DNA from: Demequina maris
Lineage (GTDB): Bacteria; Actinomycetota; Actinomycetes; Actinomycetales; Demequinaceae
DNA: 64,000 nucleotides
Direction: 5' to 3'
Assembly: GCF_000971155.1 (NCBI RefSeq)
Contig: NZ_BBLX01000005.1
Span: 62,001 to 126,000 of the forward strand
The stretch's first letter is position 1, and each line of letters opens with the position of its first letter. A model generated the notes under the pieces. It did no database searches. It was not told where the DNA came from and saw nothing but the letters and a program-made list of their open reading frames with translations. This document shows positions 15,325 through 63,593 of this stretch, piece by piece. The translations under genes were made by a program, and so were the position numbers.

Positions 15325-15887
15325 TGCGTGCAGTACTCCTCGGTCCTCCCGGTGCTGGCAAGGGCACCCAGGCCGCCCGTCTCACGGAGCGCTTCGGCGT
15401 CCCCGCGATCTCGACCGGCGACATCTTCCGCGCGAACGTCAAGGGCGGCACCCCGCTCGGCGTCAAGGCGCAGGAGTACATGAACGCGGGCCAGCTGGTC
15501 CCCGACGAGGTGACCAACGCCATGGTGCGTGCCCGCCTCGCGGAGGACGATGCGGCGCAGGGCTTCCTGCTCGACGGCTACCCGCGCAACCCCGAGCAGG
15601 CGGTCGAGCTCGACTCGATGCTGGCCGACCTGGGCGTCGAGCTCGACGTGGCGATCGAGATCACCGCGGACTTCGACGAGGTCACCGTGCGCCTCCTCAA
15701 GCGCGCCGAGATCGAGGGCCGCGCCGACGACACCGAGCCGGTGATCCGCAAGCGCCTCGAGGTCTACGCGACCTCGACGGCGCCGCTGACCGCGTTCTAC
15801 GCGGGCCGCGGCCTGCTGGTCCAGGTCGACGGCCTGGGTGAGATCGACGAGGTCACCGAGCGCCTCGTCGCCGCCGTCGCGCGCTGA
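15324..15887 (+). CDS. adk: adenylate kinase, short-lid form
   Basis: 187 residues. The enzyme interconverts ATP plus AMP with two ADP. The P-loop GPPGAGKGT is at residues 7-15 and the AMP site DGYPRN is in the middle. The lid between RAEIEGRADD and the C-terminus is short and has no zinc cysteines, the usual actinobacterial form. Start overlaps the secY stop. It carries the first copy in the window of the GGACGATGCG motif (15545), read as Glu-Asp-Asp-Ala. Confidence 0.97.
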   Translation: MRAVLLGPPGAGKGTQAARLTERFGVPAISTGDIFRANVKGGTPLGVKAQEYMNAGQLVPDEVTNAMVRARLAEDDAAQGFLLDGYPRNPEQAVELDSMLADLGVELDVAIEITADFDEVTVRLLKRAEIEGRADDTEPVIRKRLEVYATSTAPLTAFYAGRGLLVQVDGLGEIDEVTERLVAAVAR

Positions 15888-15892
15888 CCCGC

Positions 15893-16702
15893 ATGGCCGG
15901 GCGCATCGAGCTCAAGACCCGCGAGGAGATGCGGGTCATGGCGCAGGCCGGCGTGATCGTGCAGCGCGCGCTCGCCGCCGCCCGTGCCGCGTGCGTGCCC
16001 GGCGCGACCACCGCGGACGCCGACACGGCGGCCGCCCGCGTGATCGCGGAGGCCGGTGCGACGTCGAACTTCCTCGGCTACCAGGGCTTCCCGGCGACCG
16101 CGTGCGTGTCCGTCAACGAGGAGGTCGTCCACGGCATCCCGGGCCACCGCGTGATCGCCGAGGGCGACCTCGTCTCGATCGACTGCGGCGCGATCGTCGA
16201 CGGCTGGCACGGCGACAGCGCGGTGTCCTTCATCGTGGGCGAGCCCGCCTCGCGGGCCGACGTCGCGCTGGTGCGGACCACGGAGAAGGCGCTGTGGGCC
16301 GGCATCGCCGCCCTCGCCACGGCCGACCGCGTGTCGGACGTCTCCGCGGCGATCGAGGACGTCGCCGACGAGGCGGGCCTCCACCCGCTCGAGGGCTACG
16401 TGGGCCACGGCATCGGCACCGCCATGCACATGGAGCCGGACGTCCCCAACTACCGCGTGCGCGGGCGCAGCCCGCGGGTGCGCCCGGGGATGTGCCTCGC
16501 GCTCGAGCCGATGCTCGTGATCGGCACCCCGGACTCCGCCATCCTCAACGACGAGTGGACCGTCGTGTCCCTCGACGGCTCGCGCGCCGCGCACTGGGAG
16601 CACTCCGTCGCGGTGCACGAGGACGGCATCTGGGTGCTCACGTCGGAGGACGGCGGCGCCGCCAAGCTCGCGCCGCTCGGCGTCACGCCCGTCGCGCCGT
16701 AG
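15893..16702 (+). CDS. map: methionine aminopeptidase, type I
   Basis: 269 residues. It removes the N-terminal methionine of new proteins. Metal ligands are visible in DCGAIVDGWHGD and, later, GYVGHGIGTAMHMEP and LALEPMLVIG. KTREEMRVMAQAG opens the catalytic domain. It lies five bases after adk, completing secY-adk-map. In most relatives infA follows closely; here a 2-kb insert with three repeat proteins intervenes. Confidence 0.97.
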   Translation: MAGRIELKTREEMRVMAQAGVIVQRALAAARAACVPGATTADADTAAARVIAEAGATSNFLGYQGFPATACVSVNEEVVHGIPGHRVIAEGDLVSIDCGAIVDGWHGDSAVSFIVGEPASRADVALVRTTEKALWAGIAALATADRVSDVSAAIEDVADEAGLHPLEGYVGHGIGTAMHMEPDVPNYRVRGRSPRVRPGMCLALEPMLVIGTPDSAILNDEWTVVSLDGSRAAHWEHSVAVHEDGIWVLTSEDGGAAKLAPLGVTPVAP

Positions 16703-16845
16703 TCGCCGCACGACATCACCCCTGGTGTGGTCCACTCCACACCTGTTCACGCAGTCGTTACCTCACCGGCATTCCGGCGCAAAACCCACGGGTTAGCGTC
16801 GCCTCAGCCGGCGCTCCGGACGCCGGCACGCTGAGGAGGGGCGCC

Positions 16846-17463
16846 ATGGCGCGAGGGTTTTCCTATGCACCGGGGGCGAGCGCGGACGTCGACGAGGCCT
16901 CCGCGCCCGGCCTGACCAAGGAACGGATCCAGGAGCTGGGCGGGTCCCGCAACGCGCTCGTGCGCGAGGCGGTCGCCGCGCGCGAGGACTGCCCGTTCGG
17001 CCTCATGGTCACCCTGGCGCACGACCACGTCGTGCCGGTCCGTGCCGCCATGGCGGCGAACCCCAAGGTCCTGCACTCGATCCTCGACTACCTGTCGCAC
17101 GACCGGCAGGTCGCCGTGCTCTGCGCCGTCGCGGGCAACCCCTCGGCCGGGCAGGACATCCTCGAGGCGCTGGCCGCCCACCGCAAGGGCGAGGTGCGCG
17201 GTGCTGCCGCGGCGGCGCTGGACGCGCGCGCCGCACGCACCGACGTCGCCGACCACACCCCCGAGCTGCGCGACCGTGTCTTCGAGGAGTCGCAGGCGCG
17301 CCGCGAGGCGATGCTCGCGCAGGCCGCCGAGAGCAGCCTCGAGGCCGCGGCGGACGAGGCCATGGAGGCGGCCGACCCCGCCGCCGATGCCGCCGAGCCG
17401 CTGCCGTCCCGCCCCACGCGCAGCGCGCCCGTGCGCGGGTTCCGGCCTCCCGTCGACGTCTAG
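16846..17463 (+). CDS. variant leucine-rich-repeat protein A
   Basis: 205 residues from ATG 16846, with GAGGAGG at 16832-16838. Residues about 30-135 form three to four helical units of roughly 24 residues of the LRV type (HxxPxVRxAVAxR-DCPxG-LxHD). The signature EDCPFGLMVTLAHDHVVPVR matches the two proteins downstream. The last 70 residues are acidic and alanine-rich, probably a helix or disordered. No signal peptide or membrane segment, so cytosolic. LRV/HEAT-like folds usually bind proteins; no catalytic motif is present. A 7-bp inverted repeat (GGTGTGG/CCACACC, 16724-16743) precedes it and may terminate map or bind a regulator. Confidence 0.8.
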   Translation: MARGFSYAPGASADVDEASAPGLTKERIQELGGSRNALVREAVAAREDCPFGLMVTLAHDHVVPVRAAMAANPKVLHSILDYLSHDRQVAVLCAVAGNPSAGQDILEALAAHRKGEVRGAAAAALDARAARTDVADHTPELRDRVFEESQARREAMLAQAAESSLEAAADEAMEAADPAADAAEPLPSRPTRSAPVRGFRPPVDV

Positions 17464-17573
17464 CGCGGTCGCCACCCGACATTCGTCGGACCTTCACCCG
17501 CCCGTCACCTGCGCGTCAGCGGTTGCTCACCGCGACCCCCTAGCCTCGCGGGAATCGAGACGGGGAGGTGGCG

Positions 17574-63273: not shown

Positions 63274-63311
63274 CATTTCCTCCATCTCGGGTACCCGTTC
63301 AGCATTCCATG

Positions 63312-63323
63312 GTGAACGTTCAC
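63312..63323. promoter_or_regulatory. palindromic operator upstream of xfp
   Basis: GTGAACGTTCAC is a perfect 12-bp palindrome about 40 bases before the xfp start codon, in an AT-richer spot. It resembles LacI- or GntR-type half-sites. The regulator is not in the window. Confidence 0.65.
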
Positions 63324-63429
63324 ACGGCGCGGCGAAGGTCCTGATTCGTGTGCGAATTCCCGGTGAACGGGGCGGCTGCCGGCGACTGCCGCATCGTCCC
63401 GGCGCCCTTCCGCGACCCGCTCCCGACGC

Positions 63430-63504
63430 AACCGGCGTACGGGACCGGGTGCGCCGCGCATCGTGCCTGGTACGGAAGTTCGAGGCGGGCGACGTACGCC
63501 GGTT
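63430..63504. repeat. 75-bp inverted-repeat intergenic element, copy 2
   Basis: Ends AACCGGCGTAC (63430-63440) and GTACGCCGGTT (63494-63504). The centre CGCGCATCGTGCCTGG is the reverse complement of the centre of copy 1 at 48499-48580. Spacing is 23 bases on one side and 13-14 on the other in both, so the two are the same element in opposite orientation. Flanking spacer sequence is not conserved, which suggests selection on the arms and centre. Confidence 0.7.
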
Positions 63505-63593
63505 CGGTGAAGGGGGGCGGGGTGGAGCGGGCCGGAGACGCGACGAGGGCCGGCCCCCTCGCGGGAGACCGGCCCTCGTGGACGATGCGGCGG

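What the first reader, a model, noticed from the sequence alone, without database searches (positions are those of the whole stretch)
15545..63589. A 10-mer repeated 32 times in both orientations: candidate DNA-uptake or other genome-wide recognition sequence in an actinobacterium
Seen: GGACGATGCG or its complement occurs 32 times after 15.5 kb, 16 in each orientation, against fewer than one expected by base composition. Twelve are intergenic although intergenic DNA is a small part of the window. Several are arranged as inverted pairs. Known: uptake sequences of Neisseriaceae and Pasteurellaceae show the same traits (no strand bias, intergenic enrichment, paired hairpins). Strand-biased signals such as KOPS or Chi do not. 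Inference: this lineage may have such a signal. I know of none described in actinobacteria, though natural competence is known in Micrococcus. If density holds, a whole chromosome would carry well over a thousand copies.
Basis: partly seen in the sequence, partly recalled or inferred. Interest (0 to 1): 0.93.

Follow-up and report, generated by a model that had tools for sequence, protein, structure and literature searches.

The report
Actinobacterial self-DNA uptake tag with dialects
A ten-letter DNA word occurs 1,480 times on both strands of this Demequina genome, and most sister species carry it or a spelling variant of it; it likely tags DNA as "own" so that the cells would preferentially take it up, which would be new for Actinobacteria.

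Summary
The genome holds 751 + 729 copies, against 2 of the reversed word. In 533 kb of it, 266 copies face 8.8 expected (order-4 Markov); 187 coding copies face 17.3 after synonymous shuffling. Intergenic DNA is 3.1-fold enriched, close pairs are mostly inverted, and there is no strand or GC-skew bias. The genus is Demequina. Of 29 congeners where the word is rare, 22 carry another spelling (GGCCGATGCG, GGCCGATGC[C/T], GCCCGACGCT, GGACGATGCC), so 37 of 44 genomes have a dialect. Pilus, ComEA and ComEC genes are present. This is the anatomy of Neisseriaceae/Pasteurellaceae uptake sequences, with an unrelated word in another phylum. Uptake is untested and no receptor is proven: pilus-operon pilins and ComEA do not follow dialect, an orphan pilin does so only weakly. 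An unrelated 9-mer, CGGCATACG, behaves similarly in Knoellia and relatives.

The parts
15545..15554 (+). motif copy, coding (adk by eye)
21877..21886 (-). motif copy, coding
22230..22239 (-). motif copy, coding
22551..22560 (+). motif copy, coding
24201..24210 (-). motif copy, coding
27903..27912 (-). motif copy, left arm of an intergenic inverted pair (hairpin -29.0 kcal/mol on + strand)
27920..27929 (+). motif copy, right arm of the same inverted pair
30652..30661 (+). motif copy, coding
31314..31323 (-). motif copy, coding
33689..33698 (+). motif copy, coding
33836..33845 (-). motif copy, coding
36494..36503 (+). motif copy, coding
37198..37207 (-). motif copy, coding
37582..37591 (+). motif copy, coding
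38386..38395 (+). motif copy, coding
40042..40051 (+). motif copy, inverted pair inside a predicted gene
40063..40072 (-). motif copy, partner of 40042
41261..41270 (-). motif copy, coding
45643..45652 (-). motif copy, intergenic inverted pair (between convergent genes by my gene calls; the right-hand one is only 39 aa)
45657..45666 (+). motif copy, partner of 45643
47931..47940 (+). motif copy, coding
48467..48476 (-). motif copy, intergenic, between convergent genes
50069..50078 (+). motif copy, intergenic
50130..50139 (+). motif copy, intergenic
50970..50979 (-). motif copy, intergenic
53632..53641 (-). motif copy, coding
57320..57329 (-). motif copy, coding
57590..57599 (+). motif copy, coding
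60758..60767 (+). motif copy, intergenic inverted pair (hairpin -43.0 kcal/mol on + strand)
60781..60790 (-). motif copy, partner of 60758
63390..63399 (-). motif copy, intergenic
63580..63589 (+). motif copy, intergenic
2..15324 (+). motif-free ribosomal-protein / EF-G / EF-Tu / secY cluster: core genes, not an acquired island
   Evidence: gene calls; products recognised by eye from the translations

Best explanation
GGACGATGCG, present 1,480 times on both strands of this Demequina genome, likely is a DNA uptake sequence, a short self-label that would make the cell's DNA-uptake machinery prefer DNA of its own kind. Shown: the count, the lack of strand bias, the intergenic enrichment with inverted pairs, selection on the DNA word beyond codon use, the spelling dialects among sister species, and the presence of type IV pilus, ComEA and ComEC genes. 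Inferred: free DNA carrying the word is bound by a sequence-reading pilus component, drawn in by pilus retraction (PilT), handed to ComEA and ComEC, and recombined. Alleles with the exact word are taken up more often, so this molecular drive fills permissive sites with it. When the receptor's taste shifts by one letter, the genome's spelling follows and the lineages drift apart as dialects.
For: Density 0.50 per kb, 751 vs 729 by strand. 266 vs 8.8 expected (order 4, motif masked) and 187 coding copies vs 17.3, sd 3.5, maximum 27 in 60 synonymous shuffles. 79 of 266 intergenic vs 25.2 expected (p 1.6e-20). Density 3.0/kb between convergent genes, 1.7 tandem, 1.2 divergent. 15 of 20 close pairs inverted; the four window pairs fold into hairpins (no shuffle control). 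Flanks show only weak preferences, so no mobile element. One-letter variants are hardly enriched at the core CGATGC (largest: T7 to G 36 vs 19.1, A6 to C 10 vs 5.3, C4 to A 5 vs 2.4; two with expectation 0.3 have one copy each) but more so outside it, for example A3 to C 39 vs 10.0, which is a neighbouring dialect, G2 to C 38 vs 9.0, G10 to A 10 vs 1.9. CGATGC is kept in all dialects but GCCCGACGCT. 37 of 44 genus genomes have a chief spelling. At aligned places, own sites are identical in same-dialect relatives in 28 of 69 cases against 133 of 535 neighbouring 10-mers (p 0.005), and against other dialects or none in 2 of 181 (neighbouring 10-mers 99 of 1390). ComEC in 46 of 47 family genomes; ComEA (SLBB + HHH_3); pilB, pilT, pilC, pilins, pilD, pilM by Pfam, pilN and pilO by position.
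Against: No uptake experiment is known to me. No receptor is identified: the T4P operon occurs in very different types that do not follow dialect (G000 and G010 share dialect and 98% AroC, but PilC is 67% and PilM 44% alike). ComEA distance shows no link to dialect (partial Mantel r -0.03, p 0.63, 23 genomes). The orphan pilin shows a weak link (r 0.23, p 0.02 in 15 genomes; r 0.11, p 0.09 in 19) but was not found beside metE in 10 dialect-bearing genomes and is present in 6 of the 7 genomes without a clear dialect. Those 7 genomes have T2SSE-type ATPase matches and 6 of them ComEC, yet no strong word. ComEC matches in two adjoining pieces in three dialect-bearing genomes, G011, G022, G037 (error or broken gene not resolved). 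Site spacing is not significantly more even than random (CV 0.87 vs 0.91, sd 0.05). DprA was not looked for.
Confidence: 0.8

Rival explanations
1. Chi-like recombination hotspot read by the cell's own RecBCD/AddAB/AdnAB-type nuclease after DNA breaks.
For: Chi words are also short, abundant and lineage-specific (recalled). A dialect change could follow enzyme evolution.
Against: No orientation bias by strand, stretch or GC skew; strong intergenic enrichment and inverted pairs, which are not Chi traits (recalled); several spellings within one genus.
Confidence: 0.07
2. Binding site of a chromosome-organising or segregating protein (nucleoid protein, parS- or KOPS-like).
For: Even, Poisson-like spread (5-kb bins mean 2.49, variance 2.42).
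Against: KOPS-like signals need orientation bias, absent; parS-like sites are few and clustered (recalled); no strong word in 7 congeners and low counts of the tested spellings in the 3 genomes of sister genera, which must also organise chromosomes.
Confidence: 0.06
3. Target or self-mark of a restriction, methylation or BREX-type system that keeps the word common.
For: A ten-letter asymmetric word with a fixed core could be a methyltransferase site; some uptake preferences depend on methylation (Campylobacter, recalled).
Against: Such sites are normally neutral or avoided (recalled), not 30-fold enriched and favoured against synonymous codons; dialects cover 37 of 44 genomes, while such systems are patchy (recalled).
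Confidence: 0.04
4. Transcription-terminator or RNA element spread as hairpins.
For: Inverted pairs fold strongly and convergent intergenic DNA is the densest.
Against: 187 of 266 copies lie inside genes and most copies are single.
Confidence: 0.02

Closest known systems
DNA uptake sequence (DUS) of Neisseriaceae
   Same: Abundant on both strands, permissive/intergenic sites, inverted pairs as hairpins, clade-wise dialects around a conserved core (passages of PMC3630211 and PMC2397512); a density of one copy per 1-2 kb is recalled.
   Different: Unrelated sequence (no CTG core), Actinomycetota, receptor unknown, uptake untested. No ComP homologue shown.
Uptake signal sequence (USS) of Pasteurellaceae
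   Same: 9-letter core, genome-wide, two dialects, receptor only predicted (PMC12616744 passages).
   Different: Unrelated sequence (inner core GCGG there), other phylum and cell envelope.
Micrococcus luteus Flp/Tad-pilus competence
   Same: Actinobacterial competence with comEA/comEC (PMC6370729 passages); Demequina also has genes that look Tad-like by eye.
   Different: No uptake sequence is described for it in the passages I saw; Demequina has a PilB/PilT/PilC/PilM type IV pilus operon as well.
CGGCATACG-type word in Knoellia relatives (this work)
   Same: 1,716 copies in Knoellia remsis, both strands, coding copies above synonymous shuffles, intergenic excess.
   Different: Unrelated word, another family; studied only in passing.

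Membership tests
DNA uptake sequences (functional class) | Hundreds to thousands of copies, far above Markov expectation | tested here: met
   1480 copies; 266 vs 8.8 in 533 kb
DNA uptake sequences (functional class) | No strand or replichore bias | tested here: met
   751/729; heterogeneity over 25 stretches chi2 11.5, df 24, p 0.98; no GC-skew correlation. Replichores were not mapped (draft contigs)
DNA uptake sequences (functional class) | Enriched in intergenic DNA, often as inverted pairs | tested here: met
   79 vs 25.2 expected; 15 of 20 close pairs inverted
DNA uptake sequences (functional class) | Clade-wise dialects around a fixed core | tested here: met
   37 of 44 genus genomes; core CGATGC, CGACGC in two genomes; dialects follow clades on the whole, with exceptions
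DNA uptake sequences (functional class) | Type IV filament plus ComEC genes in the same genome | tested here: met
DNA uptake sequences (functional class) | Raises DNA uptake/transformation | not testable with these tools
   needs an experiment
Neisseriaceae DUS | 5'-CTG-3' core | tested here: not met
   GGACGATGCG and its complement hold no CTG; core from PMC3630211 passages
Neisseriaceae DUS | read by the minor pilin ComP | tested here: inconclusive
   an orphan pilin of ~140 aa with N_methyl motif and pilin-like predicted fold of its D. silvatica homologue; ComP not among the listed chains; weak dialect link
Pasteurellaceae USS | GCGG inner core in a 9-mer | tested here: not met
   GGACGATGCG and its complement hold no GCGG; core from PMC12616744 passages
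KOPS / Chi | orientation bias along the replichore | tested here: not met
   with GC skew and per-stretch heterogeneity as stand-ins for replichores
REP/MITE-type mobile repeat | longer conserved element around the word | tested here: not met
   flanks show only weak preferences

The most novel reading that the evidence does not exclude
Actinobacteria have their own sequence-labelled sex: uptake sequences arose independently in at least two families (Demequina with five or more spellings, mostly around CGATGC; Knoellia and relatives with CGGCATAC), are read at the surface of single-membrane cells by a pilus component that is not ComP, and dialect shifts fence off species from each other.
Probability: 0.6. 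Interest if true: 0.96.

Novelty: new variant of a known kind. Interest (0 to 1): 0.92.

Why it matters
[quoted passage not shown] A third and perhaps fourth family, in another phylum, would show that self-labelled uptake evolves repeatedly. It would give an outgroup for the long-standing question of why these words spread (drive or benefit), supply dialect-rich natural replicates in environmental bacteria, and offer a handle for genetic work on little-tractable actinobacteria.
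Full report
Observation. GGACGATGCG occurs 32 times in the window, 16 per strand, all between 15545 and 63589; 100 shuffles gave a mean of 1.00 and at most 4. Twelve copies are intergenic by my gene calls, against 2.7 expected. The window lies in G000:C18:62001-126000 of a 2.97-Mb draft genome that holds 751 forward and 729 reverse copies; the reversed word has 2. 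The reversed word is a generous control, since the true word reads well in codons (GAC GAT GCG), so I also used Markov and codon-shuffle controls below.

Who it is. NCBI places Demequina in Demequinaceae, Micrococcales, Actinomycetota.

Anatomy. In 533 kb of this genome (window + 24 stretches) there are 266 copies, 125 on + and 141 on -. Order-4 Markov expectation with the motif masked is 8.8. Inside genes there are 187, against 17.3 (sd 3.5, maximum 27 in 60 runs) when synonymous codons are shuffled within each gene: the DNA word itself is favoured. Frames are uneven: sense GAC-GAT-GCG 103, antisense 53 and 22, all others 9. 79 copies are intergenic against 25.2 expected. Density per kb is 3.0 between convergent genes, 1.7 tandem, 1.2 divergent. 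Of 20 close pairs 15 are inverted, and the four of the window fold into strong hairpins (without a shuffle control). Around the 79 intergenic copies there is a weak extension: G before the word in 49, G or C in the first and second place after it in 74 and 73, G in the third in 53; nothing looks like a longer element. Counts per 5-kb bin are Poisson-like (mean 2.49, variance 2.42), orientation is homogeneous over 25 stretches (p 0.98), unrelated to GC skew and not significantly related to net gene strand. Spacing is not significantly more even than random. The empty first 15.5 kb of the window is the ribosomal-protein cluster, and the second half of L137, which holds most of the T4P operon, is also empty.

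Near-misses. One-letter variants are little enriched at the core CGATGC: the largest are T7 to G 36 vs 19.1, A6 to C 10 vs 5.3 and C4 to A 5 vs 2.4, leaving aside two variants with an expectation of 0.3 and one copy each. Outer places tolerate change more: G1 to C 47 vs 22.3, G1 to A 10 vs 2.6, G2 to C 38 vs 9.0, A3 to C 39 vs 10.0, G10 to A 10 vs 1.9; but G2 to T 0 vs 3.0 and A3 to G 6 vs 12.2 are not enriched.

Relatives. In the family search (47 genomes: 44 Demequina, 3 of two sister genera) 15 Demequina genomes hold 711-1564 copies; the other 29 hold 10-235, the sister genera 4-29. Of 361 genomes of 19 other families of the order none exceeds 102. A k-mer scan of samples from 35 genomes (own included; relatives 20-80 kb each) showed why: low-count species have other spellings. 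Whole-genome counts then gave, as chief spelling, GGCCGATGCG in 6 genomes (667-1203 copies), GGCCGATGCY in 13 (327-1269) and GCCCGACGCT in 2 (908 and 254); GGACGATGCC in G022 rests on an 80-kb sample (17 vs 0.6). That makes 15 + 22 = 37 of 44. G004, G012, G033, G034, G036, G039 and G043 have none or only weak signals (G012 263 copies of GGCCGATGCY; G034 a hint of GGCCGACGCT in 60 kb); only the spellings I tried were counted genome-wide, and G033, G036 and G039 had no k-mer scan. The exact spelling of G026 is unsure (its sample also favours GTCCGACGCG). G011 is only 50% complete and holds both GGCCGATGCG (671) and GGCCGATGCY (1071); several other genomes also carry a second spelling in the hundreds, such as G031 (669 of GGCCGATGCG). 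D. pelophila (G017) holds 927 copies of one dialect and 483 of another, an apparent intermediate. The 20-kb samples of G009 and G028 did not show their dialect, while their whole genomes do.

Phylogeny. AroC+AroB and ComEC trees (FastTree, some weakly supported nodes) put dialect A (GGACGATGCG) in two separate places (the G000 group, and G020 with G028 beside G004), and the genomes with mixed GGCCGATGCC/GGCCGATGCT in more than one; so spellings change or are exchanged, but on the whole they follow clades. At aligned places, 28 of 69 own sites are identical in same-dialect relatives against 133 of 535 neighbouring 10-mers of the same codon phase (p 0.005); against other dialects or none it is 2 of 181 (neighbours 99 of 1390), and 1 of 6 in G022. 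At 9 of 138 places in the three GGCCGATGCN groups the partner has its own spelling exactly there, so most sites are placed anew in each dialect. These comparisons reuse 77 distinct own sites across several relatives and are not independent; three named loci were counted as dialect A, D. gelatinilytica by kinship only.

Machinery. ComEC is found in 46 of 47 genomes, the exception being an 85% complete one; in G011, G022 and G037 it matches in two adjoining pieces, which may be errors or breaks. In this genome ComEC and an SLBB + HHH_3 ComEA lie side by side. Between aroE and aroC lies a type IV pilus operon: pilB, pilT, pilC, a major pilin, two minor pilins, a PilX-like protein (no Pfam match; named by position), pilD, pilM, and by position pilN and pilO. 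A second PilT-like gene and genes that look Tad-like exist. DprA was not searched.

Reader of the word. The pilus operon differs strongly between close species and cuts across dialects, ComEA shows no link. Each of 8 genomes searched has a pilin gene outside the operon; in 7 of the 8 it is the same ~140-aa orphan, mostly next to metE, a protein family whose close matches with an organism name are all Demequina or Demequinaceae (names shown for part of 46 proteins); its D. silvatica homologue has a pilin-like predicted fold. Its distances are weakly linked to dialect beyond ComEC distance (partial Mantel r 0.23, p 0.02, 15 genomes; r 0.11, p 0.09 in 19 with genomes lacking a dialect), and its nearest neighbour shares the dialect label in 24 of 31, a figure not corrected for kinship. 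Against it: G010 and G019, close to G000, carry a divergent version, and 10 dialect-bearing genomes have none beside metE.

A second word. The k-mer look at 20-kb loci from other genera flagged CGGCATACG in Knoellia remsis. The genome has 1,716 copies; its counts equal those of G302, which places it in family f17 of the search. There 21 of 33 genomes tested have at least 193 and the other 12 at most 23, while 17 genomes of other families, Demequina included, have 1-32. The reversed control is itself raised there (236 in K. remsis; in G244 439 against 927) because it shares part of the core. In 61 kb of K. remsis CGGCATAC has 61 copies against 3.8 expected, 17 coding copies of the 9-mer face 1.5 after synonymous shuffling (maximum 6 of 200), and 9 of 28 GGCATACG copies are intergenic against 3.3 expected. 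This is a lead, not a full study.

Judgement. The sequence-level traits of uptake sequences that I could test are met, the two known kinds are excluded as homologues (different core, different phylum), and each main rival misses at least one strong observation. Uptake itself has not been measured, so the function is an inference, though in my view a strong one.

Noticed in passing
L241, L318, L319 (Knoellia remsis): CGGCATAC about once per kb on both strands; CGGCATACG 1,716 copies genome-wide and high in 21 of 33 genomes of its family: a probable second actinobacterial uptake-like word.
   Followed up: partly
L137 9258-20000 and L138 50-895, against L141-L156: The type IV pilus operon between aroE and aroC differs deeply between close Demequina species (G000 and G010: AroC 98%, PilM 44%), as if exchanged by recombination in the flanks.
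   Followed up: partly
window (9 copies): CTTGCCCTTG / CAAGGGCAAG occurs 9 times against 0.14 expected (order 3); not placed or explained.
   Followed up: no
own stretches L033-L052: CAAGTCACAC / GTGTGACTTG 8 copies in 4 stretches against 0.02 expected; possibly a regulatory box.
   Followed up: no
Arthrobacter loci such as L245, L259, L260, L282: ACGACGTCG repeated 7-11 times per 21 kb in many Arthrobacter-type loci, partly at matching coding places.
   Followed up: no
G017 (Demequina pelophila): Carries two dialects at once, 927 and 483 copies, an apparent transition state.
   Followed up: partly
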